Source: Lentzea indica (GTDB taxonomy: Bacteria; Actinomycetota; Actinomycetes; Mycobacteriales; Pseudonocardiaceae). Taken from it: a stretch of 58,859 bases of DNA. Where the stretch lies: assembly GCF_012184385.1 (NCBI RefSeq), contig NZ_VSRL01000031.1, positions 1 to 58,859 of the forward strand. Direction: 5' to 3'. The position numbers and the translations under genes were made by a program. Positions within the stretch are counted from its first letter, which is position 1, and every line of letters begins with the position of its first letter. This document shows, piece after piece, positions 5,222 through 53,046 of the stretch. The notes under the pieces are model-generated. The model saw only the letters and a program-made list of their open reading frames with translations, searched no databases and was not told where the DNA came from.

Positions 5222-6967
5222 GTGAACGCACAACCGGGGACTGCGACGGTGGTCGCGGCACAGGCAGGCGACCAGCGCGCGTTGGACGAGCTGGTGGCGG
5301 GCTATCTGCCGCTCGTCTACAACATCGTGGGACGAGCGCTGGCCGGGCACAGCGACATCGACGACGTCGTGCAGGAGACGATGCTGCGGGTCGTGCACGG
5401 GCTCGGTGCGCTGCGTGATCCCGGCAGCTTCCGCTCGTGGCTCGTGGCGATCACGATGCGGCAGGTGCGTGATCGCGGACGCCTGGTCGCGCGAGCCGAC
5501 GACCGTGAGCTCGCGGAGGTCGCGGATCCCGGTGCCGACTTCGTCGACCTGACCTTGTTGCGGCTGGAGCTCTCGGGACAGCGGCGCGAGGTCGCCGAAG
5601 CGACGCGCTGGGTCGACAGCGACGACCGCGAGCTGCTGTCCCTGTGGTGGCTGGAGGCTTCCGGTGAACTGAGCAGGGCCGAGCTCGCGGCGGCCATGGG
5701 CATCACGACCCAGCACGCCGCCGTGCGCGTTCAGCGGTCCAAGGCGACGCTCGCCGCGGGACGGGCCGTCGTGCGGGTGCTGCGGATGGAACCGCGTTGT
5801 CCCGAACTGGTTGTCGTCGTGCGCAACTGGGACGGCGTGCCGACCGCGCTCTGGCGCAAGCGGATCGCCCAGCACACCAGGGTCTGCGGGCGCTGTGAGG
5901 TCGTGTGGCAGGAGCAGGTGCCCGCGGAACGGCTGCTCGCCGGGCTGGCGCTGGTGCCGGTGCCGGTCGCGTTGCTGCCGCAGGTGCTCGGTGGCTCCGG
6001 TGGCTCCGGCGCAGTGCGGTGGTGGAAGGGCCTGTTCTCGAAACCGGTCGCCGCGGCCGTCGCGACGGTCGTCGCCGTCACGGCGGGCACCGTCGTGTAC
6101 ACCTCGACCCCGGACGCCTCGCCCCAACCGGCAGCGCAAACCGGTGAGATCACGCCCACAACGACGACCTCGACCACAACGACGACGGTGGCGCCGTCAT
6201 CCACTGACACCGCAACAACAACAGCAACAACCACGCCCAAGACGACACCGGCCGCGCCCGCTGGACCCCGGTACGGCAGCGTGGTCGACACCGTGGACTC
6301 CGCACCAGACAAGCTGACCCCGCCGAAGAAACTGCCGGTGCGGCCGGCCGGTGAGATCACGGCGGCCGGCGGGCAGTACGCCGACCCGCAGAGGGGCTGG
6401 ATCGGCGGACGGTACGTGATGATGCGCCGAGGTGAGCACGTCGTGCTGCGCGGACGCGGCTACTTCATGGTGCGGTACGAGATCGCGTGGTTCAACCGTC
6501 CAGGTGGGATGGTCATGCCGACCTGGACCGGCTTGCGGGGCAAGCTGTTCCACGTCGCGTCCGGCGGGACGAAGCGCATGGACGACCAGTCGCCCGGCAA
6601 GCCAGCGGGGTACTCCCCGATGGGTGAGCCGGTGCCGGGCCCGAGCGGTCCGGCGGCCGGGTACGTCCACCTGCCGGCCGGGGCGCAGCAGATGTGGCAG
6701 AACGAGTTCTTCTACCTCGACGGCGAAGTCGCGCTCTACAACAACGAGCGCGGCGCGGACTACAACATCACCGCCACGCCGAAGACGTGGGACGAGGTGA
6801 CCGCCGACATCACCGCGCCACCGGCCGGCGTCACCGGCGGGAAGGGCGGGATCCGCTACGGGCTGGTGCGCGACACCGGCGACGACGGTGCGCCGGTGCC
6901 TCAGTACGTCACCCGCGAGAAGCCTGCCGACCCCGCCACGGTTCCGCAGCAGTCGGCGGTGAGCTGA
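5222..6967 (+). CDS. ECF sigma factor fused to zinc-finger, membrane helix and extracytoplasmic domain
   Basis: The 581-residue protein starts with an ECF sigma factor. Region 2 has DIDDVVQETMLRVVHGL at about 45-61, and region 4 has SRAELAAAMGITTQHAAVRV at about 154-173. HTRVCGRC at about 218-225 matches the H-x3-C-x2-C of zinc anti-sigma (ZAS) domains. One membrane helix lies at about 276-295, followed by a Thr/Ser-rich linker at 305-345 and a 220-residue Gly/Trp/Tyr-rich outer domain. Known actinobacterial ECF groups carry C-terminal anti-sigma fusions (ECF52/ECF53-like), so membrane tethering with release on an outside signal is likely. The GTG start is supported by GAGGAG 9 bases upstream. 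No separate anti-sigma gene is adjacent. Confidence 0.8.
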   Translation: MNAQPGTATVVAAQAGDQRALDELVAGYLPLVYNIVGRALAGHSDIDDVVQETMLRVVHGLGALRDPGSFRSWLVAITMRQVRDRGRLVARADDRELAEVADPGADFVDLTLLRLELSGQRREVAEATRWVDSDDRELLSLWWLEASGELSRAELAAAMGITTQHAAVRVQRSKATLAAGRAVVRVLRMEPRCPELVVVVRNWDGVPTALWRKRIAQHTRVCGRCEVVWQEQVPAERLLAGLALVPVPVALLPQVLGGSGGSGAVRWWKGLFSKPVAAAVATVVAVTAGTVVYTSTPDASPQPAAQTGEITPTTTTSTTTTTVAPSSTDTATTTATTTPKTTPAAPAGPRYGSVVDTVDSAPDKLTPPKKLPVRPAGEITAAGGQYADPQRGWIGGRYVMMRRGEHVVLRGRGYFMVRYEIAWFNRPGGMVMPTWTGLRGKLFHVASGGTKRMDDQSPGKPAGYSPMGEPVPGPSGPAAGYVHLPAGAQQMWQNEFFYLDGEVALYNNERGADYNITATPKTWDEVTADITAPPAGVTGGKGGIRYGLVRDTGDDGAPVPQYVTREKPADPATVPQQSAVS

Positions 6968-7699: not shown

Positions 7700-10600
7700 A
7701 TGCAACAGGGAAGCCTGCTCACCTTGGTGCGGGAGTTCATGGAGAGGCCGGAGCACCACGGTGTGCCGACCACCCGGCGTACACCGGTGCTGGTGTTCAC
7801 CGGCCCCAAGGGCTCTGGCAAGACCGCGCTGCTCGACGAGGTCGAGTCGCGGCTGACCGGCAACGTTCCGCACGCCGGCATCGACTGCGCGACGTTGAAG
7901 GCCAACGCCGCGTGGGAGGTGCTCGCGAGCCTCACCTTCGAGCTCAACCGCACGGCCGCGGGATACGGGACGGTTCCGTTCCCGCGGTTCGTGACCGCTC
8001 AGGTCGCGATCGCCCAGGACTTCACCGGTCTGACCCGTGGCAAGAAGCACGAGCAGCTGGAAAGAGCGCTGGAGGAGACGCACAACGTCGACAAGCTGCG
8101 CGAGATCATCGGCGTGATGGCCGAGCAGGCCGCCCAGTTCGTGCCGGTGATCGGCCCGGCCGCGCGGTACGCGCCGGAGCTGGTGCTGGCCGGGCTCAAG
8201 GCGAACGGGTGGAGCCGGCAGTTCGTGCTGGGCACCGGACTCGCCCACTACGGCTCGGACAAGACCGTCGCGTACGACGAGCTGGTCAGGATCAACCAGC
8301 TCACCAGGAACGACGCGAGGGAGGAACAGCGCCAGGCCGCGACCGAGGTGCTGTGGGGCGCGTTCCTCGCCGACCTGCGCGCGGCGTTCGGCTCCGGTGG
8401 CCGCAAGCGGAGGTGGTCGCTGAACTGCGTGCTGCTGCTGGACAACATCGACGCGGATCAGGGCCGGATCCTCTACCGGGCGCTCACCGACGTCCGGCGC
8501 AAGGCCGAGCCGGATCCGCTGACCGTGATCGCGACCAGCGGTGGCGCTCTGCCCCGGCACCTGGATCCGAAAGAACGCATTCCGTTCGCCGAGGAGGCGA
8601 GCTACGCGAGCTACCTGGAGGAGCGGCAGGGCGAGTACCGCTCCGACTCGTACCCGGTGCGGCTGCGGGACCTGACCCTCGACGAGGTCGCAGGGATGCT
8701 GGACGACGTCGCGCCGCAGTGGATGGACGAGCGGCGCACGTTCGCGTCCTGGATCTACCGGATGACGCTCGGCCACCCCGCGGCGACGGCCGTGCTCGTC
8801 AAGGCGCTCAGCGACCGGGTCAGCAGGCCGGGTTCGCTGCGGGAACTGTTGTCCGACGAGTTCCCCGGCTCGGTGGACAAGGACGAGCAGATCACCGTCC
8901 GGCAACGGCTGCGCCGCAAGTTCCTCGGCGACAAGCCCGGCGAGGAGTTGCTGACGCGCTTGCGGGCATGCGCGGCGGCCCGTGACATCGACCAGGCCGA
9001 GCTGTTGCGGGACAGCGGGTTGATCGTCTCGCCCGCCGACAACGCGGCGCTGGTGCCGGCGGAGCTCCAGGTCGTGGAGGCAGGCAAGAAGGTCATGCTG
9101 CCCGCGTTCCGTCACCTGATGCTCGCCGAGCTGGCCGAGGAGCGCGAACGCTGGCTCGCGGTGCACAGCTGGTTGCGGAACAAGGGGACGGACCGGCAGT
9201 ATCACGCGCTCGCCGCGCGGGATGTCCAGGCGGTGGTGGCTCGGCTCGAGCACGGGCTGTCCGATGCGAAGACCTGGCTGGAGTCGTTGCACTCCATCAC
9301 CGAGGCGCCCAACGACCTGAGGCTCGACCACGACGACGCCGAACCGGACCGCGTGCTCGCCGCCGCCGCCGGGTGGCAGCCCTCGGACAGCCGGAGCCGG
9401 ACGCTCGCCAGGATCGTCGCGGCGTTGTGGATCGCACGGGATCCGCTGACCACGACCAGGCGCAAGGATCTGTACCGCAGTGCCGCGTTCGACCTGCGCA
9501 TGCTCGCGCAGGACCCTGGGGCAGCTCGCAACGACCTGCGGCACGAGGCCGACGCGCTGGACCAGCGGGCGGAGACCGTCGACGATATGCCGGAGACCGC
9601 GGCCCGCACCTCGGCAGGCCGCACTTCGTCTGGCCGCGCCGCACCTCGTCCTTCGATGATGCCCCCGGTGTCCACAATGGAACGGCGCAGGCGTGGGCAA
9701 GCCAAGGTCGTCGCGGTGGTGGCCGCGGCCGCGGTACTGGCGGTCGCCGGGTTCGTCGTCGTACCGCAGCTGTGGAAGTGCGGCGACGAGGTGTACAAGC
9801 GCGACGGGGAATGCGTCGGCATCGCGCACAGCTCGTACGTCTTCGACGACCGGCTCGGCGACGCGCAGCGCAAGATCTACGCCGAGAACGACAAGATCAA
9901 GGCTGAGCCGCACGTCACGGTCGCGATGATGACCCCGATGACGCCGTTGCCACAGGACGCGGGCAGCGTGACCTGGGAACGGGTGCGTGCGCAGCTGGAG
10001 GGTGCGCACGTCGCGCAGCTCGCCGCGAACCGGCCGGGAAGGCTGCCCAAGGTGCGGCTGGTCCTGGCGAACCCCGGCAGCACGCAGCAGGGATGGCGGG
10101 AGGTCGTCGACCAGCTCACCAGCACGGTGAACGACCTCGTGGGGGTGGTCGGCATCGGGCTCAGCACGATGCCGACCCAGGAAGCGGCGAAGGCTCTCGC
10201 CGCGGCCGACATCCCCATGGTGGCCTCGGTCGTGACCGCCACCGACATCAACGTCGACGAGCAGGACGGAAAATCTGGTTACATCAAGGGTTTCACCCGT
10301 GTGAACACGACGAGCGCCGACCAGATCGAAGTGCTGTCGGCGTTCCTCACCGGATCCGGCGTCGGCACGGCGATGCTGGTGTACGACACGAACGACCAGG
10401 ACCTCTACACCTCGACGCTGTACCGGGAGTTCAAGCAAGCGGCCACCGACCGGCGCGGTCCGCAGATCACGGTGCAGAGCCCGTTCGACACCGAGGCGGC
10501 ACTGGACACCCAGTTCAACGAGATCACCAAGGACCTGTGCGCCGACGGCGCACCCACCACGATCCTCTATGCCGGCCGCGCGGTCCTGCTCGACGACCTG

Positions 10601-11113
10601 ATCCGCAACCTGCGTGACCGAGGCTGCGCGCTGGACCGGCAGATCACCCTGGTGACCGGCTCCGACGCCTCGATGTTGCGGTCCCGCAACGACCTGCGAC
10701 CCAAGGAGGACGACGCGAAGCTCGCGATCGTCTACACCCCGCACTTCGATCCGGACGCGATGCGCGAAGACCTGGGATTCGTGGCCATCGGCAAGGAGTT
10801 CGACCGGCTCGGGTTCCGCCGGGAGGACCTGGACGACGGCTGGGGCATCATGATGCACGACGCGATGCTCGCCACCACGGAGTCGATCAGCCAGGCGGCC
10901 AGCGGGCTCGGTGCCGGCGCCACGGTGACACGCAAGGACGTCCGGGCCGCACTGTCGCGGCTGGACCGCAAGAAGAACGCGGTGAACGGCGCAGGAGGCA
11001 CGTTCGGGATCAACGCCACGACGGGCAACTCCACCGGTCGCCGGCTGCCGGTGATCGAGGTGGACGCGGAGGGCTCGTTCATCGTCAGGAAGATCATTGA
11101 TCTGCCCGGTTGA
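7700..11113 (+). CDS. P-loop ATPase / single TM / periplasmic-binding-protein fusion receptor
   Basis: The 1137-residue protein has a cytoplasmic N-terminal NTPase. The Walker A sequence GPKGSGKTALL is at residues 35-45, and the Walker B-like sequence CVLLLDNID is near 245. A helical region runs to about 655. One membrane helix lies at about 667-692 (VVAVVAAAAVLAVAGFVVV). A Cys-containing stretch WKCGDEVYKRDGECVG follows, then a roughly 430-residue type-1 periplasmic-binding fold resembling branched-chain amino-acid receptors, with segments such as VVGIGLSTMPTQEA, GFTRVNTTSADQ and VTGSDAS. The predicted topology puts ligand binding outside and the ATPase inside. This would be a one-protein receptor rather than an ABC importer subunit, since no permease is nearby. 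The ATG at 7700 follows AGGGGGG by 6 bases; GTG 7634 would add 22 residues. Confidence 0.7.
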   Translation: MQQGSLLTLVREFMERPEHHGVPTTRRTPVLVFTGPKGSGKTALLDEVESRLTGNVPHAGIDCATLKANAAWEVLASLTFELNRTAAGYGTVPFPRFVTAQVAIAQDFTGLTRGKKHEQLERALEETHNVDKLREIIGVMAEQAAQFVPVIGPAARYAPELVLAGLKANGWSRQFVLGTGLAHYGSDKTVAYDELVRINQLTRNDAREEQRQAATEVLWGAFLADLRAAFGSGGRKRRWSLNCVLLLDNIDADQGRILYRALTDVRRKAEPDPLTVIATSGGALPRHLDPKERIPFAEEASYASYLEERQGEYRSDSYPVRLRDLTLDEVAGMLDDVAPQWMDERRTFASWIYRMTLGHPAATAVLVKALSDRVSRPGSLRELLSDEFPGSVDKDEQITVRQRLRRKFLGDKPGEELLTRLRACAAARDIDQAELLRDSGLIVSPADNAALVPAELQVVEAGKKVMLPAFRHLMLAELAEERERWLAVHSWLRNKGTDRQYHALAARDVQAVVARLEHGLSDAKTWLESLHSITEAPNDLRLDHDDAEPDRVLAAAAGWQPSDSRSRTLARIVAALWIARDPLTTTRRKDLYRSAAFDLRMLAQDPGAARNDLRHEADALDQRAETVDDMPETAARTSAGRTSSGRAAPRPSMMPPVSTMERRRRGQAKVVAVVAAAAVLAVAGFVVVPQLWKCGDEVYKRDGECVGIAHSSYVFDDRLGDAQRKIYAENDKIKAEPHVTVAMMTPMTPLPQDAGSVTWERVRAQLEGAHVAQLAANRPGRLPKVRLVLANPGSTQQGWREVVDQLTSTVNDLVGVVGIGLSTMPTQEAAKALAAADIPMVASVVTATDINVDEQDGKSGYIKGFTRVNTTSADQIEVLSAFLTGSGVGTAMLVYDTNDQDLYTSTLYREFKQAATDRRGPQITVQSPFDTEAALDTQFNEITKDLCADGAPTTILYAGRAVLLDDLIRNLRDRGCALDRQITLVTGSDASMLRSRNDLRPKEDDAKLAIVYTPHFDPDAMREDLGFVAIGKEFDRLGFRREDLDDGWGIMMHDAMLATTESISQAASGLGAGATVTRKDVRAALSRLDRKKNAVNGAGGTFGINATTGNSTGRRLPVIEVDAEGSFIVRKIIDLPG

Positions 11114-29930: not shown

Positions 29931-30950
29931 TCAGGCGCTCGCCCTGCGCACCAGGGAGGTGGGCAGCAGAACGGACATCGGCAGTTTCTCTTCGCCCGCC
30001 AGCTCGGCGAGCAGACGCCACGTCAAGGTGCGGCCGAACTGCTCGACGTCCTGGCGCACGGTGGTGAGCGGCGGTACCGCGGTCGACGCCAGCACGGAGT
30101 CGTCGAAGCCGATCACCGCCACGTCGGCGGGGATCCGGTAGCCGCGCACCTGGAGCACCCGCAGCGCGCCCAGAGCCATGATGTCCGCCGCCACGAAGAC
30201 AGCGTCGAGGTCGGGCGCCCTGCGCAGCAGCTCCTCCATCGCGAGCGCGCCGCTCTCGGGCGTGAAGTCGCTGTGCACCACGAGTTCCACGGCCATGCCG
30301 TGTTCCGCGAGCCCGCACCGCCACCCGCTCAGCCTGTCCATGCCGACCGCCATGTCGCGCGGGCCTGCGATCGTGGCGATCTTCTTGCGGCCGAGTGAGA
30401 CGAGGTGGCGCACCGCCTCCAGCGCACCGGTGAAGTTGTCGGAGTCGACGAAGGGGACGGCGCCGCCCGCGAGCGGACGGCCGCCCACCACGATCGGCAG
30501 GCCCGTCTCGTGCAACGTCCTCGGCAACGGGTCCTCGCCGTGCAGGCTCACCACGAGCGCGCCGTCGACGTGGCCGCCGGTGAGGTACGCGACCAGGTCC
30601 TCACCGTCCGACGGCTGGTTCATCATCAGCAGGAGCTGGACATGCCGCCCGGCCAGCTCGGCGTGGACGCCGCGCAGCACCCCGGCGAAGAACGGGTCGG
30701 CGAGAACCCGGCTGCCCTGCTCGGAGACCACGAGCGCGATCGCGTCAGCCCTGCTGCCCGCCAGCGTCCTCGCCGCGTGGTTCGGGCTGTACCCGAGCAA
30801 CGCGATCGCGCGGTGCACCGACTGGCGGGAGCGTTCGCTCACGTACTTCTCGCCGTTGATCACCCTTGAGACGGTGGACTTCGACACCCCGGCCACGCGC
30901 GCCACCTCCTCGATGCGCGGGCCGGGGCGCCGACTCCTGCCTTCCGTCAC
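29931..30950 (-). CDS. cebR: LacI-family repressor, CebR-like, last gene of the ceb operon
   Basis: The 339-residue protein has the LacI headpiece RIEEVARVAGVSKSTVSRVI and a sugar-binding core (SEQGSRVLADPFFAGVLRGV, FVDSDNFTGALEAVRHLVSL, IGFDDSVLASTAVPPLTTVR). CebR represses cellulose genes by binding TGGGAGCGCTCCCA and is released by cellobiose. Five such boxes are in this window, which supports the name. The GTG start overlaps the bglC stop by 4 bases, so the repressor is cotranscribed with the genes it controls. A close paralogue is at 36777. Confidence 0.82.
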   Translation of the reverse strand: MTEGRSRRPGPRIEEVARVAGVSKSTVSRVINGEKYVSERSRQSVHRAIALLGYSPNHAARTLAGSRADAIALVVSEQGSRVLADPFFAGVLRGVHAELAGRHVQLLLMMNQPSDGEDLVAYLTGGHVDGALVVSLHGEDPLPRTLHETGLPIVVGGRPLAGGAVPFVDSDNFTGALEAVRHLVSLGRKKIATIAGPRDMAVGMDRLSGWRCGLAEHGMAVELVVHSDFTPESGALAMEELLRRAPDLDAVFVAADIMALGALRVLQVRGYRIPADVAVIGFDDSVLASTAVPPLTTVRQDVEQFGRTLTWRLLAELAGEEKLPMSVLLPTSLVRRASA

Positions 30951-32326
30951 GAGACCGCGACCAACGCGTTGTCGCGGGCCACTCGGGCGAACCACCTCGC
31001 ACTCATCTTCGGCGTGCGGGTCTGGGTGGCGTAGTCGACGTGGACGATGCCGAACCGCTTCGCGTACCCCTCTGCCCACTCGAAGTTGTCCAGCAGCGAC
31101 CAGCAGAAGTAGCCGCGCAGATCGACTCCCGCGGTGATCGCCGTGTGTGCGGCGCGCAGGTGGGAGGCGATGTATCCGGTCCGGTCGACGTCGTCGATCG
31201 CACCGTTGCCCGAGAAGTCGTCGCGGAACGCGGCGCCGTTCTCGGTGATGTAGAGCGGAAGCCGCGGGTAGTCGTGGTGCAGCCGCAGCAACACGGCGGT
31301 GAGCCCGTCCGGGTGGACCTCCCAGTCCATGTCGGTCCGCGGAGCGTCGCGGCGGGGGAACGACGCGTGCTGCACGCCGACCCACGGAGACGGACCTGGC
31401 TCGCTGCCGTTGGGCGAGGAGCTGACGTAGTGCTCGGTGTAGTAGTTCACGCCGAGCATGTCCATCGGCGCCGAGATCACGCCGAGGTCGCCGTCGTACA
31501 CGTGCTCGCTGAACCCGAACGGTTCGAGGTCCGCCACGATGTCCGCGGGGTACTCACCGCGCAGCAACGGGTCGAGGAAGATCCGCTGCTGCAGCCCGTC
31601 GAGCCGGCGCGCGACGTCGAGGTCCGCAGGACTCGCCGGGTCGACCGGGATGATCGGGTACATGTTGAGCGTGATGCCCACCTTCGCCTCCGGCTCAGCG
31701 GCGCGGATGGTGTCGGCCGCGAGCCCGTGCGCGAGCAACAGGTGGTGCACCGCGGCGACGGCGGCGTCGGGCTCCGTGCGGCCCGGCGCGTGAACACCGG
31801 ACGCGTAGCCCAGGAACGCCGAGCACCACGGTTCGTTCAACGTTGTCCACGTGGTGACGCGGTCACCGAGCGCCTCGACGGTGGCCGCCGCGTAGTCGGC
31901 GAACCGGAACGCCGTGTCGCGCGAGGCCCAACCGCCGGTCTCCTCGAGCTTCTGCGGCAGGTCCCAGTGGTAGAGCGTCGGCCACGGCACGATGTCGTGC
32001 GACAGCAACGTGTCCACGAGCCGCCGGTAGAAGTCGAGGCCCGCCTGGTTCACCTTGCCGCCGTCCGGCCGCACCCGCGGCCAGGCGATCGAGAACCGGT
32101 AGGCCTTGAGCCCGAGCTCGGCCATCATCGCCACGTCCTGCTCGAACCGCCGGTAGTGGTCGGCCCCGGGTTCGCCGGTGTCGCCGCCCACGACCTTGCC
32201 GGGCACCCGGCAGAAGGCGTCCCAGATGGAGTCGGTGCGACCGTCCTCACCGGTCGCACCCTCCACCTGGAACGCCGCGGTCGCGGCTCCCCACAGAAAA
32301 CCCTGCGGGAAAACAATGTTCTCCAT
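30947..32326 (-). CDS. bglC: GH1 beta-glucosidase
   Basis: The 459-residue cytoplasmic GH1 enzyme starts FPQGFLWGAATAAFQVEGA. The acid/base Glu is in TTLNEPWCSAF, the nucleophile Glu in LYITENGAAF, and YFCWSLLDNFEWAEGY is conserved near the end. It splits cellobiose and short cellodextrins to glucose after import, as BglC does in Streptomyces. The ATG at 32326 has AAGGGG about 5 bases upstream and begins 2 bases after the cebG stop. The hydrolase removes the inducer, so it also dampens the response. Confidence 0.92.
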   Translation of the reverse strand: MENIVFPQGFLWGAATAAFQVEGATGEDGRTDSIWDAFCRVPGKVVGGDTGEPGADHYRRFEQDVAMMAELGLKAYRFSIAWPRVRPDGGKVNQAGLDFYRRLVDTLLSHDIVPWPTLYHWDLPQKLEETGGWASRDTAFRFADYAAATVEALGDRVTTWTTLNEPWCSAFLGYASGVHAPGRTEPDAAVAAVHHLLLAHGLAADTIRAAEPEAKVGITLNMYPIIPVDPASPADLDVARRLDGLQQRIFLDPLLRGEYPADIVADLEPFGFSEHVYDGDLGVISAPMDMLGVNYYTEHYVSSSPNGSEPGPSPWVGVQHASFPRRDAPRTDMDWEVHPDGLTAVLLRLHHDYPRLPLYITENGAAFRDDFSGNGAIDDVDRTGYIASHLRAAHTAITAGVDLRGYFCWSLLDNFEWAEGYAKRFGIVHVDYATQTRTPKMSARWFARVARDNALVAVS

Positions 32327-32328
32327 TT

Positions 32329-33147
32329 TCACCCCTTGACGGCGCCCTGCATCACACCGGCGACGATCTGCCGCCCGAGCACGAGGAACACGATGAGAAC
32401 CGGAACGGTCGCGAGAGTCGTCCCGGCGAGTACGAGCGAGTAGTCGACGTAGTAACCGCTCTGCAGCTTCTCCAGTGCGACCTGGAGGGTCGGGTTGTCG
32501 GCGTTGAGCACGACCAACGGCCACAGGAAGTCGTTCCAGGACTGCATGAACGTGAACACGCCCAGCATCGCGGCGGCAGGCCGTGCGGCCGGCAGCGCGA
32601 CGTGCCAGAACGTCCGCCACAGGCTGCAGCCGTCCATCCGCGCCGCCTCGACGAGCTCGTCGGGGATGGCGTCGAGCAGGTACTGCCGCATCCAGAACAC
32701 GCCGAACGCGGTGACGAGGTTCGGCACGATCACGGCCTCGAGCTCACCGGCCCAGCCGAACTCGGCCATCGCCATGTACAGCGGGATGATCCCGAGCTGG
32801 GTCGGTACCGCGAGCGTCGCCACCACGAACAGGAACAGCACACCCCGGCCGCGGAACCGCAGCTTGGCGAAGGCGAACCCGGCCAGCGTCGACAGCAGCA
32901 CCACCGACAGGGTCACCGTCCCGGACACGATGAAGCTGTTGCCCAGCGCCTTCCAGAACGGGATGGTGTCGAACACCCGGCTGGCGTTGGCGAAGAAGTT
33001 CCCGCCGGGGATCAGCGTGAAGTCACCGGTCAGCACCGAGTTGTCGCGGCTCGCGACCAGGTACGACCAGTAGAACGGGAACGCAGAGCCGAGCACGAAC
33101 GCGCCGAGCAGCCCGTACACCAGGAACGAAGGTCTGCGGTTGGTCAT
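32329..33147 (-). CDS. cebG: cello-oligosaccharide ABC transporter permease CebG
   Basis: The 272-residue protein has six predicted helices and the MalG-type EAA loop VEAARMDGCSLWRTFWHVAL. It is the second inner-membrane subunit of a carbohydrate uptake (CUT1) importer. The ATG at 33147 overlaps the cebF stop by 4 bases. No ATPase gene is in the operon. In Streptomyces the shared ATPase MsiK serves several CUT1 importers, and the same is likely here. Confidence 0.88.
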   Translation of the reverse strand: MTNRRPSFLVYGLLGAFVLGSAFPFYWSYLVASRDNSVLTGDFTLIPGGNFFANASRVFDTIPFWKALGNSFIVSGTVTLSVVLLSTLAGFAFAKLRFRGRGVLFLFVVATLAVPTQLGIIPLYMAMAEFGWAGELEAVIVPNLVTAFGVFWMRQYLLDAIPDELVEAARMDGCSLWRTFWHVALPAARPAAAMLGVFTFMQSWNDFLWPLVVLNADNPTLQVALEKLQSGYYVDYSLVLAGTTLATVPVLIVFLVLGRQIVAGVMQGAVKG

Positions 33148-34103
33148 CGCACCGCCCTCCTGGTGACGAGGAAGTTGATTCCGGCGACGGCGATCACGAT
33201 CAGGAACAGCACCCACGCGATCGCGGAGGCGTAGCCGAGATCGAGACCCTGGAACGCCGACTGGTACAGGTAAAGCACGACGGTCTGGTACTGGTGCTCC
33301 GTGCCGCCGCCGCTGCCGCCCGACGGCTCGAACAGCTTCGGCTCGGTGAAGATCTGCAGGCCGCCGATGGTCGAGGTGACGATGACGAAGATCAGCGTCG
33401 GCTTCAGCATCGGCAGCGTGATGCTGAAGAACCGGCGCAGCGGACTCGCGCCGTCGACGAGTGCAGCCTCGTGCACCTCACGGGGGATCGCCTGCATGGC
33501 GGCGAGCACGATCAAGGCGTTGTACCCGGTCCATCGCCAGTTGACCATGGAGGCGATGGCGACGTGGCTGCCGAACGTGTCGGCCTGCCAGTCGATCGGA
33601 CCGATGCCCACCGCCGTGAGGACGTCGTTCACCAGTCCGTACTGCGGGCCGAACAGGTTGCCGAAGATGATCGTCAACGCCACGAGGCTGGCGACGTAGG
33701 GCAGCAGCACGCCCATCCGCCAGCCGGTGCGAGCCCGCAGGTTCTCGTTGAGCAGTGCCGCGATCGCCACGGCGATGACAATCTGCGGGGCGCTGGAGAG
33801 CACGAAGATGCTGAACGTGTTGAACAGCGCGTTCCAGAACTGCCCGTCGTCGAACAGCGTCCGGTAGTTCTCCAGGCCGATGAACGTCGGGTCGTCGGCG
33901 CCCACCTCCCAGTCGAACAGCGAGACGTAGGCCGTGTACAGCAACGGGAACAGCCCGATCGCGCCGAACAGGACGAAGAACGGCGCGACGAACAGGTACG
34001 GCGAGACCTTGGCGTCCAATCGGGACATTCGGTGCCGCCGCGGCGGCCGCGGGCGAGCCTCCTCCGCTCGCCCGCGGTCGACCTTGGAGAGAACGGCGGT
34101 CAC
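33144..34103 (-). CDS. cebF: cello-oligosaccharide ABC transporter permease CebF
   Basis: The 319-residue MalF-type permease has six predicted helices and the EAA loop VHEAALVDGASPLRRFFSIT. The N-terminal cytoplasmic tail is basic (RPRPPRRHR). GTG 34103 is chosen because it shares a GTGA with the cebE stop, showing translational coupling. It pairs with CebG in the membrane. Confidence 0.88.
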   Translation of the reverse strand: MTAVLSKVDRGRAEEARPRPPRRHRMSRLDAKVSPYLFVAPFFVLFGAIGLFPLLYTAYVSLFDWEVGADDPTFIGLENYRTLFDDGQFWNALFNTFSIFVLSSAPQIVIAVAIAALLNENLRARTGWRMGVLLPYVASLVALTIIFGNLFGPQYGLVNDVLTAVGIGPIDWQADTFGSHVAIASMVNWRWTGYNALIVLAAMQAIPREVHEAALVDGASPLRRFFSITLPMLKPTLIFVIVTSTIGGLQIFTEPKLFEPSGGSGGGTEHQYQTVVLYLYQSAFQGLDLGYASAIAWVLFLIVIAVAGINFLVTRRAVR

Positions 34104-35380
34104 TTGGCCGCCTTCTGCGCGCCCTCTACGGCGGTCTTCCACGCCTCCTCGGCGTTCTTACCCTGCTCGACCGACTGCAGCGCCGGGCTGAACACGGTCT
34201 CCTGGATCTGGCCGTCCGCAGGACCCTTGTACTGCGCGGCCTTGACCTTCTTGGCCTGGGTGGCGAACAGCGCACCGGCCTTGACGTCACCGAAGTAGGC
34301 GTTGGTCTGCTCCAGCAGCTCCGGCGCGTCGAGCGCCTTGACCTGGCTGGGGAAGGTGCCCTTGGCCTTGAACGCCTTGATCTGCTGCTCCGGCGCGGTC
34401 AGCCAGGCAGCGAGCTCGGCGGCCTTCTTGGCGTTCTTGCTCTGCTTCGGCACGCTCAGGTACGAGCCACCCCAGTTGCCACCGCCGTTGGGGAACGCGT
34501 CGGTGACGGCCCACTTGCCCTTGTTCTCAGGACCGGCCTGGGACTCGACCACGCCGAGCATCCACGACGGGCAGGTCTTGGTGGCGAACTTGCCGAGCTT
34601 GAACCCGGTGTTCCACTCGTTGCTGAACGCCGCGAGCCTCGCCGACTGTCCCTTGCCGACGGCGGTGGTCACCGCGGTCCAGTCCGCCTTGATGTCGGGG
34701 TTGGTGTCCACGACCAGCTTGTCGGACTTGTCGTAGTAGCCGGTCTCGTGCTGGTTGTGCATGGCGTTGAACACCTGTGCGGCGCTGTCGAACCAGGCGA
34801 CGCCGGGGACCTTGGCGATGAACTGGTCACCCGCGGCGAAGTAGCTGTCCCACGTGGCGAACAGCGCCTTGACGCCCTCCGGGTCCGACGGCAGACCGGC
34901 CTGCGCGAACAGGTCCTTGCGGTAGCACATGGCGAGCGGACCGATGTCCGTGCCGTAGCCGATGAGCTTGCCGTCCTTGGTGGTGATGGCGTCGGTCTTC
35001 CACTGCAGCCAGCGCCCGGCCTCGAGCTTCGGGCCGATCTCGTTGAGATCGTTGAACTGCCCGGCCTTCGACATCACCTGGCTCAGGTAGCCCTCTTCGA
35101 CGCCCTCGATGTCCGCGAGGCCGGAGCCCGCGCCGAGCTTGGTGAACAGGTTCTGGTGGTGAGGCTGGCCCTGGCCGGTCTTGCGTTGTGTGATCTTGAC
35201 GTCCGGATGCGCGGCTTCGTACTCCTTGAACAGCTCTTCGTAGCCGAACTCGTTGAACGTCGCGATCGTCAGTTCGGTCTTGCCGTCCGATGACTGACTG
35301 GCCCCGCCCGAGCCGCATGCGGTGGTGGCGGCGGCGGACACGGCGGCACAGATCAGCACGCTGACCCAACGGTGTCGCAC
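34100..35380 (-). CDS. cebE: cello-oligosaccharide-binding lipoprotein CebE
   Basis: The 426-residue extracellular solute-binding protein has a lipoprotein signal (CAAVSAAATTAC, lipid-attached Cys near residue 19). A family-1 sugar-binding fold follows (TIATFNEFGYEELFKEYEA, EGYLSQVMSKAGQFNDL). The GTG at 35380 has GAGGAG 7 bases upstream; an upstream ATG would put 29 residues before the signal. It captures cellobiose or cellotriose and delivers it to CebFG. The operon promoter holds a perfect CebR box 34 bases before the start and a second, weaker box further up. Confidence 0.88.
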   Translation of the reverse strand: MRHRWVSVLICAAVSAAATTACGSGGASQSSDGKTELTIATFNEFGYEELFKEYEAAHPDVKITQRKTGQGQPHHQNLFTKLGAGSGLADIEGVEEGYLSQVMSKAGQFNDLNEIGPKLEAGRWLQWKTDAITTKDGKLIGYGTDIGPLAMCYRKDLFAQAGLPSDPEGVKALFATWDSYFAAGDQFIAKVPGVAWFDSAAQVFNAMHNQHETGYYDKSDKLVVDTNPDIKADWTAVTTAVGKGQSARLAAFSNEWNTGFKLGKFATKTCPSWMLGVVESQAGPENKGKWAVTDAFPNGGGNWGGSYLSVPKQSKNAKKAAELAAWLTAPEQQIKAFKAKGTFPSQVKALDAPELLEQTNAYFGDVKAGALFATQAKKVKAAQYKGPADGQIQETVFSPALQSVEQGKNAEEAWKTAVEGAQKAAK

Positions 35381-51838: not shown

Positions 51839-52687
51839 TCAGAAGACCAGGAAGCTGAGCGGTGTCGACACCAGTGTCAGGCCACTGACCAGCGCCGTCC
51901 ACCGCTGCAACGCCGAGGCGCTGGTCCGGTTCGCGATGCGCTCCAGGCGTGCCGAGGCGGCTGTGATGCCCAGCGCGCCTGCGGGTGGGCTGGCCGTGAA
52001 CCGGTGGAGCGCAGAAGCGAGTGCTTCCGGGCCGTGTTCGCGGCAGGCGCGGTCGTCCGCTCGCATCTCGACGAGCAACGCGACCGCGTCCGCCACGCGT
52101 GGCGCGCACCGGCGCAGCGCGACGAACGGCAGCAGCACCAGGTCGTGCCGTTCGCGGGCATGGGACCGTTCGTGCGCCAGCACCGCGTGTAGCTCGGCGG
52201 TCGACAGGTTGCGCAACGCTCCCGTGCTCAGCACCACCGACGACGGCGTGCCCGGGAGGCAGTACGCCACCGCGACAGGATGGTCGACCACCAGCGCGCC
52301 CGGCGCGGCCTCGTCCGTGCGGCTGACCAGCGCCAGCACGTCCCGATGGCGCCGCCTGATCCGCGCGACCGTGAACCACGAGGTGACGAGCACCGCGACG
52401 AACGCGACCGGGACGGCGAGCCCGCCTGCCACCAGCACGTCCTGGGTCACAGTGGACAGTGGATCGCCCGCCCACGCGGACAGCGCTTCGGGGATGGGTG
52501 CGTCGTACGGGTCGAGGCCGAGCGTGATCAGCACGCCCGCCAGCGACAGCACCCACGTGGCCGCCAGCATCTGCCACAACGCGATGCCGGTGCCCGGTGC
52601 GCGCCACACCCATCGCGCCCTGACCAGGAGGTGTGCCGCCACCGGGCAGATGGCCAGCGTGACGACGAGGTGCAGTGCGGCGCTCAC
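51839..52687 (-). CDS. M56-family (BlaR1-like) membrane metalloprotease
   Basis: The 282-residue protein has membrane helices near the N-terminus and around residues 80-105. The zinc protease motif is AVLAHERSHARERHD (HExxH), with a downstream Glu in LVEMRADDRACREHG. It lacks the C-terminal penicillin-binding sensor domain of BlaR1, like the short mycobacterial BlaR homologues. It should cleave BlaI on a cell-wall or membrane signal. The start overlaps the blaI stop by 4 bases. Confidence 0.85.
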   Translation of the reverse strand: MSAALHLVVTLAICPVAAHLLVRARWVWRAPGTGIALWQMLAATWVLSLAGVLITLGLDPYDAPIPEALSAWAGDPLSTVTQDVLVAGGLAVPVAFVAVLVTSWFTVARIRRRHRDVLALVSRTDEAAPGALVVDHPVAVAYCLPGTPSSVVLSTGALRNLSTAELHAVLAHERSHARERHDLVLLPFVALRRCAPRVADAVALLVEMRADDRACREHGPEALASALHRFTASPPAGALGITAASARLERIANRTSASALQRWTALVSGLTLVSTPLSFLVF

Positions 52688-53046
52688 GTCTCGTCCTGCT
52701 TGTCGGCGAGCGCCTGCGACAGCATCTCGGCCTCAGGACTGCTCACCGACCGGGCGAAGTGGGTCAGGGCGGCCTCACGGTCGCCGGTGAGCGACAGCGC
52801 GTCGAGCATGAGCTGGGCGACGTACTCCTCACGGCTGGCGACGGGGGAGTACCGCCACGCCCGGCCATCGGCCTCGCGCTGGACGAAGCCCTTCGACGCG
52901 AGGCGGGTCAGGACGGTCATCACGGTGGTGTAGGCGAGGTCGCGCTTGGAGAGCGACTCCGCGACGTCGCGCACCAGCATCGGCGTGCGGCTGTCCCACA
53001 GGACCTCCATCGCCGCACGTTCCAGCTCACCCAGCTTGCTCAGCAC
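52684..53046 (-). CDS. blaI: BlaI/MecI-family repressor
   Basis: The 120-residue winged-helix protein (LGELERAAMEVLWDSRTPML, SKRDLAYTTVMTVLTRLASK, GFVQREADGRAWRYSPVASR) matches BlaI/MecI. Dimers bind TACTACA-N2-TGTAGTA-like sites and are removed by the partner M56 protease. The only clear operator I see is at 51785-51830 before the membrane/ccsB operon, not before blaI itself. Confidence 0.9.
   Translation of the reverse strand: MLSKLGELERAAMEVLWDSRTPMLVRDVAESLSKRDLAYTTVMTVLTRLASKGFVQREADGRAWRYSPVASREEYVAQLMLDALSLTGDREAALTHFARSVSSPEAEMLSQALADKQDET

What the first reader, a model, noticed from the sequence alone, without database searches (positions are those of the whole stretch)
7700..11113. 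Receptor that joins an intracellular P-loop ATPase to an outside periplasmic-binding domain
One polypeptide has Walker A/B motifs, one membrane helix and a branched-chain-amino-acid-receptor fold. No permease or kinase partner is nearby. This looks like a ligand-gated NTPase switch, unlike ABC import or two-component sensing, and is the best candidate here for an undescribed signalling system.
Basis: partly seen in the sequence, partly recalled or inferred. Interest (0 to 1): 0.72.

Follow-up and report, generated by a model that had tools for sequence, protein, structure and literature searches.

The report
STAND ATPase–transmembrane–binding-protein receptor
This actinobacterial gene encodes what looks like a one-pass membrane receptor whose outside half resembles an amino-acid-binding protein and whose inside half resembles the ATPase switches of immune receptors; relatives carry the same outside half on other inside domains or as a two-gene pair, so it looks like a shared, mostly undescribed receptor family.

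Summary
Window 7700-11113 (+) encodes a P-loop NTPase, one membrane helix and a LivK/mGluR-type binding-protein domain. It is not a chance fusion. Most relatives of this form are two-gene operons (ATPase, then TM-binding protein). With an ATPase profile run on 148 genomes of the class, 7 of 9 matches sit beside, or in one gene with, this binding protein. The ATPase resembles STAND switches (a STAND-TPR protein, MalT, plant NLRs, CED-4; low TM-scores) but has no effector domain. Among 102 binding-protein domains examined, the partner was this ATPase in 39, a P-loop-less homologue in 44, and TIR, TIR-kinase, kinase, TIR-NB-ARC, NACHT, KAP-like or DUF4062 domains in 10. Pocket positions and three of four cysteines are near-invariant across all partners. 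Best reading: a modular cell-surface receptor that passes an extracellular, amino-acid-like cue to cytoplasmic switch or immune-type domains. Ligand, gating and output are inferred, not shown. The closest description found is one sentence in Kaur et al. 2020 on caspase proteins with TM and PBP.

The parts
7700..11113 (+). Whole receptor gene, 1137 aa (alternative GTG start 7634, 1159 aa)
   Evidence: relative L003 8010-11408
7700..8659 (+). P-loop NTPase core (about residues 1-320), the part shared with the P-loop-less homologues
   Evidence: A1 alignment, AF2 model, hhalign with the P-loop-less set Prob 99.7, E 1.3e-25 over 295 columns
7802..7825 (+). Walker A GPKGSGKT
8429..8446 (+). Walker-B-like VLLLDN; the Asp is invariant in A1
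8771..8779 (+). GHP (GxP-type) motif; the Gly is invariant in A1
   Evidence: meaning of the motif recalled
8660..9595 (+). Helical C-terminal arm of the ATPase half
   Evidence: AF2 model secondary structure; the hhalign match of the P-loop-less homologues stops before it
9596..9706 (+). Low-confidence linker ending in the basic stretch ERRRRGQAK
   Evidence: low pLDDT at the end of the model and the start of that
9707..9763 (+). Transmembrane helix
   Evidence: hydropathy; helix 11-44 in the AF2 model of 9644-11113
9779..11110 (+). Type-I periplasmic-binding-protein domain, inferred to be extracellular; cysteines at codons 9779, 9812, 10538, 10625
10070..10579 (+). Span holding the candidate pocket codons: Asn 10070, Ser 10163, Thr 10235, Asp 10400, Tyr 10406, Arg 10577
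   Evidence: conservation across 102 receptors; profile alignment with a Leu-binding protein and mGluR5

Best explanation
It is a single-pass cell-surface receptor. Outside, a LivJ/mGluR-type domain binds a small molecule, probably amino-acid-like and perhaps carrying an extra acidic group met by the nearly invariant arginine. Closure of that domain is passed through one helix to a cytoplasmic STAND-type NTPase, which changes nucleotide state or oligomerises and so signals to unknown targets. In most relatives of this form the two halves are separate, closely spaced genes. In others the outside half is attached to TIR, TIR-NB-ARC, TIR-kinase, NACHT or DUF4062 domains, or to a P-loop-less homologue of the ATPase core that would act as an adaptor. 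Shown here by sequence and prediction: the architecture, the fold of the outside half, the operon/fusion association, pocket and cysteine conservation, and the domain swapping. Inferred: topology (positive-inside rule, conserved cysteines), ligand class, gating of the NTPase, and output.
For: Fold of the outside half: LivK E 7.3e-17 and mGluR domains. STAND kinship: Foldseek top hits 6mfv STAND-TPR, 8bob (MalT, recalled), NRC3/NRC2, CED-4, E 1.2e-4 to 1.1e-3; at E 0.01 Pfam AAA_16 in 12, nSTAND_NTPase5 in 5 and NACHT in 2 of 16 members. Association: 7 of 9 ATPase-profile matches in 148 class genomes lie next to or in one gene with the PBP. 17 of 33 split pairs have the start within 10 nt of the previous stop or overlapping it (16, one). 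Distances of the two halves co-vary over 36 pairs, r 0.81, 0 of 2000 permutations as high. The fused form sits in two separate places on the tree. Swaps: TIR_2 E 2.5e-34, NACHT E 1.9e-7, TIR_2 plus NB-ARC (the latter below its Pfam cut-off, but FxSxx_TPR above its NCBIfam cut-off), Pkinase, DUF4062, TIR_2 plus Pkinase and a KAP-type NTPase. Pocket, of 102: Arg in 101, Ser/Thr at S174 in 97, Ser/Thr at T198 in 98, Tyr/Phe at Y255 in 101; three of the four window PBP cysteines are Cys in 95, 95 and 98.
Against: No ligand, ATPase activity or phenotype is known. TM-scores of the ATPase model to the STAND hits among the top eight are low (0.22-0.31 by query length, up to 0.38 by target length), and its Walker B reads LLLDN, without the usual second acidic residue. 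8 of 39 ATPases have an altered P-loop, so NTP-driven gating may not be general. No effector domain was found in the window protein. One ATPase match (G161) has no PBP next door and one (G335) is a weak partial hit. 7 of 102 PBPs had no recognised partner and 1 was unresolved; of these, L069 (and L142, outside the 102) lies next to a convergent kinase-like gene instead. Pfam's own PBP model is below its cut-off for the window.
Confidence: 0.6

Rival explanations
1. The NTPase is only a scaffold or dimerisation platform: the receptor signals by ligand-induced rearrangement, with no hydrolysis cycle, as the P-loop-less homologues suggest.
For: 44 of 102 receptors carry a homologous core without Walker A (none gains a GxxxxGK[ST] when the open frame is extended upstream, though 3 of the 44 have a short N-part); 8 of 39 ATPases have K to R or A, or GKG, in Walker A; Walker B lacks its second acid.
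Against: 31 of 39 keep an intact GxxxxGK[ST], including the window, and the match of the P-loop-less set stops before the helical arm, so it may be a separate branch with another job.
Confidence: 0.25
2. It is an outward-acting system: the cytoplasmic NTPase controls the conformation or availability of the outside binding domain (a nutrient trap or surface antigen) rather than sensing with it.
For: No effector domain was found in the NTPase half.
Against: The same outside half sits on TIR, kinase, NACHT and NB-ARC signalling domains, which argues for outside-in signalling; no permease recurs beside it.
Confidence: 0.08
3. It is a variant ABC importer, or an importer-derived binding protein that joined an ATPase by accident.
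For: The outside half is related to ABC importer binding proteins.
Against: One TM helix; no ABC_tran match among the listed Pfam families; no permease in a recurring neighbour cluster; the pairing recurs in genomes of several families of the class and the halves co-diverge.
Confidence: 0.03

Closest known systems
System 4 (EACC1 / caspase) of Kaur et al. 2020 (PMC7159879; section 33 read whole, other passages by word search)
   Same: Actinobacterial two-gene system; the caspase protein can end in TM helices and an extracellular PBP domain; regarded there as a membrane-associated conflict system.
   Different: No caspase match here and the upstream gene is a sigma factor; the partner is a STAND-like ATPase or its P-loop-less homologue. 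The paper names the PBP only as one of many variable C-terminal domains, and that section describes no STAND-TM-PBP pair. Its figure 7C was not seen, and whether its PBPs belong to this family was not tested.
STAND NTPases (MalT, AfsR-like, NB-ARC/NACHT NLRs)
   Same: P-loop core with GxP-type motif and helical C-terminal arm; most top Foldseek hits. L133 matches NCBIfam FxSxx_TPR above cut-off over residues 170-586 and then carries TM-PBP.
   Different: Sensor predicted outside the membrane; no effector domain found; Walker B is LLLDN; P-loop altered in 8 of 39.
Receptors with a binding-protein-like ectodomain (ANP receptor guanylate cyclase, one TM; mGluRs, 7 TM)
   Same: Same ectodomain fold, so ligand closure across the membrane is a plausible analogy.
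   Different: Opposite protein order (ectodomain at the C-terminus) and an NTPase inside; an analogy of function only.
ABC importer binding proteins of the LivJ/LivK type
   Same: Fold and aligned pocket Thr/Tyr.
   Different: Membrane-tethered to, or paired with, a non-ABC NTPase; no permease; family-specific Arg in the YAGR motif; conserved cysteines.

Membership tests
STAND NTPases | Walker A P-loop | tested here: met
   GPKGSGKT in the window; intact in 31 of 39 family ATPases that cover it
STAND NTPases | Walker B hhhhD[D/E] | tested here: inconclusive
   hhhhDN in the window; Asp invariant in A1, the next residue mostly Asn
STAND NTPases | GxP-type motif C-terminal to the core (recalled as a STAND hallmark) | tested here: met
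   GHP in the window; Gly invariant in A1, the Pro not
STAND NTPases | Overall fold: core, winged helix, helical arm | tested here: inconclusive
   7 of the top 8 Foldseek hits are STAND proteins (8bob counted as MalT from memory; the other is HslU), E 1.2e-4 to 1.1e-3, but TM-scores only 0.22-0.31 by query length
STAND NTPases | Effector domain in the same protein | tested here: not met
   No Pfam or NCBIfam match besides P-loop and PBP ones and sub-threshold hits; Walker A starts at residue 35. Not all STAND proteins are recalled to have one
Type-I periplasmic-binding-protein fold (LivJ/ANF receptor) | Fold of the C-terminal half | tested here: met
   pLDDT 85.6; 3td9 LivK E 7.3e-17, TM 0.80 by target length, 0.59 by query length
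Type-I periplasmic-binding-protein fold (LivJ/ANF receptor) | Pfam model above its cut-off | tested here: not met
   ANF_receptor 14.2 bits for the window, cut-off 25.4; among 17 members 5 match ANF_receptor and 3 Peripla_BP_6 at E 0.01, best 1.5e-10
ABC importer | ABC-type ATPase and linked permease | tested here: not met
   No ABC_tran in the Pfam lists; no permease in a neighbour cluster shared by three or more of 19 loci
Kaur 2020 System 4 | EACC1 5' gene and caspase domain | tested here: not met
   No caspase match; the upstream gene is an ECF sigma factor. No EACC1 profile was run
Known anti-phage defence systems | PADLOC model match | tested here: not met
   0 matches for 6 proteins at E 0.001

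The most novel reading that the evidence does not exclude
A cell-surface counterpart of NLR-type immune receptors in actinobacteria: one extracellular sensor with a fixed, amino-acid-like pocket is shuffled among STAND, pseudo-STAND, TIR, TIR-NB-ARC, NACHT and kinase modules (and, if the PBP of Kaur's caspase proteins is the same, caspase), so that one class of external small molecule (a danger, kin or competitor cue) drives different cytoplasmic immune or death-type outputs.
Probability: 0.3. Interest if true: 0.85.

Novelty: new variant of a known kind. Interest (0 to 1): 0.6.

Why it matters
STAND, TIR and NACHT proteins are usually thought of as sensors of what is already inside the cell. 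Here the sensor appears to be outside, with a pocket of known type. That makes a concrete question testable: which extracellular molecule is read, and does it switch a STAND-type NTPase across a membrane? The outside domain can be purified and screened, the split pairs give natural interaction tests, and the P-loop-less homologues are natural controls for the role of nucleotide.

Tried and rejected
Rejected: the antisense 1165-aa ORF as a gene (lower coding score; not searched for relatives); an ABC importer; a PADLOC defence system. A chance fusion was rejected because the pairing recurs.

Literature searches returned no paper; 31, 79 and 80 (1, 8 and 2 papers listed) nothing relevant; 39, 65 and 89 list only 20 of 4,986, 15 of 113 and 10 of 3,825 papers, and of those listed the relevant ones are Kaur 2020 and 2021.

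Caveats: most of the 102 PBPs were fetched because the PBP or the whole protein matched, and only part of the matches was fetched, so partner proportions among them are not unbiased. Only samples ATPases without regard to the PBP, and its profile A1 was itself built from PBP-linked ATPases. Gene starts are from a simple caller and some are late; two split PBPs in the set are fragments as called (83 and 402 aa). The tree is a quick LG+G4 tree without bootstrap; one of the 102 rows was too short for it, and its change counts cannot tell fusion from fission.
Full report
THE GENE. The one relative found in genome contigs is in Actinosynnema sp. ALI-1.44 (L003, 84% over 1137 aligned residues). Its 19-kb locus shares no other evident orthologue with the 58.9-kb window: one further gene of it matches two window genes of one family at 33-37%. 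The gene has therefore moved or its surroundings have been rearranged. Pfam alone sees little: AAA_16 (20.3 bits, cut-off 32.6) and ANF_receptor (14.2 bits, cut-off 25.4); NCBIfam gives nothing above a cut-off.

RELATIVES OF THIS FORM ARE MOSTLY TWO-GENE OPERONS. Searching the whole protein found matches in 3 of 246 phylum genomes at E 1e-10 and 19 of 80 relatives at E 1e-8, the own genome counted in both. Reading the loci showed an ATPase gene (565-739 aa as longest ORF, apart from one cut by a contig end) directly followed by a TM-PBP gene (438-559 aa as called, two fragments apart). Of 33 such split pairs, 17 have the second start within 10 nt of the first stop or overlapping it; 7 of these overlap by exactly 4 nt. 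Profiles of each half (A1, 16 rows; A2, 17 rows) were run on 148 genomes of the class each. At E 1e-15 A1 gave 9 matches in 8 genomes; 7 lie beside or in the same gene as an A2 match (G000 twice, G050, G182, G380, G423, G443). G161 has no PBP next door, and G335 is a weak partial match with no evident gene. On the PBP tree the fused STAND form occupies two separate places: window with L003, and L053/L054/L070/L128; such counts cannot tell fusion from fission. Pairwise distances of the two halves correlate over 36 pairs, fused ones included (r 0.81; 0 of 2000 permutations as high; r 0.55 over the 617 of 630 comparisons with ATPase identity below 40%). Shared species history may contribute. In 19 loci (256 genes; 18 loci of about 18 kb, one of 6.4 kb; the window and others not included) no third gene recurs: besides the pair, only two clusters reach three loci, each with 4.

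THE OUTSIDE HALF. AlphaFold2 on A2 gives pLDDT 85.6, pTM 0.84. Foldseek ranks LivK 3td9 first (E 7.3e-17, TM 0.80 by target length), followed by another leucine-bound binding protein (4n0q) and mGluR5 ligand domains; the ANP receptor 1t34 is also listed. By sequence profile the best are 4n0q at E 7.4e-10 and mGluR5 at 1.2e-7. In those alignments window residues S174 (mGluR5), T198 and Y255 (both) line up with a Ser, Thr and Tyr that I recall as amino-acid contacts in mGluR5; R312 lines up with a Tyr of 4n0q. Numbers count from base 9644. Across 102 receptors R312 is Arg in 101, S174 is Ser in 91 and Thr in 6, T198 is Thr in 64 and Ser in 34, Y255 is Tyr in 87 and Phe in 14, and N143 is Asn in 99. 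The window's PBP half has four cysteines (46, 57, 299, 328); the last three are Cys in 95, 95 and 98 of 102 and the first in about half. The ATPase half has three cysteines. Disulfides are inferred, not seen. Of 102 proteins a TM was detected in 92; K/R are more frequent before it in 67, equal in 16 and fewer in 9.

THE INSIDE HALF. AlphaFold2 on A1 gives pLDDT 78.5, pTM 0.77. Of the eight best Foldseek hits seven are STAND proteins (6mfv, 8bob taken as MalT from memory, NRC3 three times, NRC2, CED-4) and one is HslU; E-values are 1.2e-4 to 1.1e-3 and TM-scores low, and AAA+ proteins such as HslU, ORC and Cdc6 follow, so STAND membership is likely but not proven. By sequence the solved-structure search returns only general P-loop matches, best a P-loop protein at E 5e-7. 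Of 16 A1 members, 12 match AAA_16, 10 AAA_22, 5 nSTAND_NTPase5 and 2 NACHT at E 0.01. Walker A is intact in 31 of 39 ATPases that cover it (K to R in 5, K to A in 1, GKG in 2; a fortieth, L041, is cut by a contig end).

P-LOOP-LESS HOMOLOGUES. Forty-four of the 102 receptors have an N-terminal domain without GxxxxGK[ST]. It was first seen in 31 by A1 similarity and extended to 44 by an iterated profile. hhalign of the 44 to A1 gives probability 99.7, E 1.3e-25, 295 columns, ending near residue 310 of the window: the core and its LLLD...DPLLV region are kept, Walker A and the helical arm are not (consensus). The set was assembled in part by this similarity, but the first 31 came from the A1 profile alone. 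Extending the open frames upstream adds no P-loop in any of the 44; three have a short N-part as called (L100, L120, L125).

SWAPPED PARTNERS. The 102 (99 plus window, L003 and L065) divide into 44 P-loop-less, 33 STAND split, 6 STAND fused, 4 DUF4062, one each of TIR, TIR-NB-ARC, TIR-kinase, kinase, NACHT, KAP-like split and an HTH-like guess by eye, 1 unresolved and 7 with no partner found. Pfam supports TIR_2 (2.5e-34 in L079, 1.6e-25 in L133, 5.5e-25 in L065), Pkinase (1.1e-45 in L091, 1.4e-47 in L065), NACHT (1.9e-7 in L046), DUF4062 (1.1e-11 to 1e-13 in four) and, for L052, AAA_22 and KAP_NTPase; NB-ARC in L133 is below its cut-off. L037, called HTH-like, has no such Pfam match. L091 (kinase) seems a late-start call of the TIR-kinase type. 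L133 scores above the NCBIfam cut-off for FxSxx_TPR over residues 170-586: there TM-PBP appears where that family has repeats. All 13 labels need 17 changes on the tree, against a mean of 49.5 in shuffles, so partners are inherited within clades with repeated exchanges; TIR occurs in two distant parts of the tree.

DISTRIBUTION. A2 at E 1e-25 matches 60 of 345 class genomes, 38 of 80 relatives including all 24 of the own genus (own genome counted), and 5 of 246 phylum genomes, all 5 in the own class. Other phyla were not searched with it. Named examples of split pairs are on plasmid records of Embleya sp. NBC_00888 and Streptantibioticus cattleyicolor.

LITERATURE. Section 33 of Kaur et al. 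2020 (PMC7159879; that section read whole, other passages by word search; [quoted passage not shown] Kaur 2021 (PMC8195603; 12 of 25 found passages shown) mentions inactive STAND domains and CHASE2 receptors; the words periplasmic and PBP do not occur in it. In the listings of searches, several of which show only a part of the papers found, I saw no description of STAND-TM-PBP proteins; most subscription papers, bioRxiv preprints and figures were not available.

MECHANISM. Swapping of one outside domain, with its pocket kept, among well-known signalling domains argues for outside-in signalling with a shared ligand class. What the STAND form does when triggered is open: no effector was found, so recruitment in trans or oligomerisation is assumed. 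The P-loop losses mean that a hydrolysis cycle may be dispensable; that rival gets 0.25.

Noticed in passing
window 5222-6967 (+): ECF-type sigma factor (Sigma70_r2) with a long Thr/Pro-rich C-terminal extension and two hydrophobic segments, directly upstream of the receptor.
   Followed up: partly
window 51839-53010 (-): A protein with four hydrophobic segments next to a small gene that looks, from memory, like an M56 peptidase / BlaI-type repressor pair; no profile search run.
   Followed up: no
window 30947-35380 (-): Looks, from memory, like a GH1 glucosidase with a sugar ABC transporter (two permeases and a binding protein); about 20 kb from the receptor; no profile search run.
   Followed up: no
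L071-L074, L076, L077: P-loop-less receptors of genomes of one family (code f91) sit beside genes that look like serC, citrate synthase or pdxH (names from memory), so this branch may be a fixed core gene there, unlike the patchy STAND pairs.
   Followed up: partly
   Followed up: no
L093 5065-8512: Two tandem TM-PBP genes behind one ATPase gene.
   Followed up: no
L133 875-4495 (-): TIR plus an NB-ARC-like part of the FxSxx_TPR type, followed by TM-PBP where that family has repeats.
   Followed up: partly
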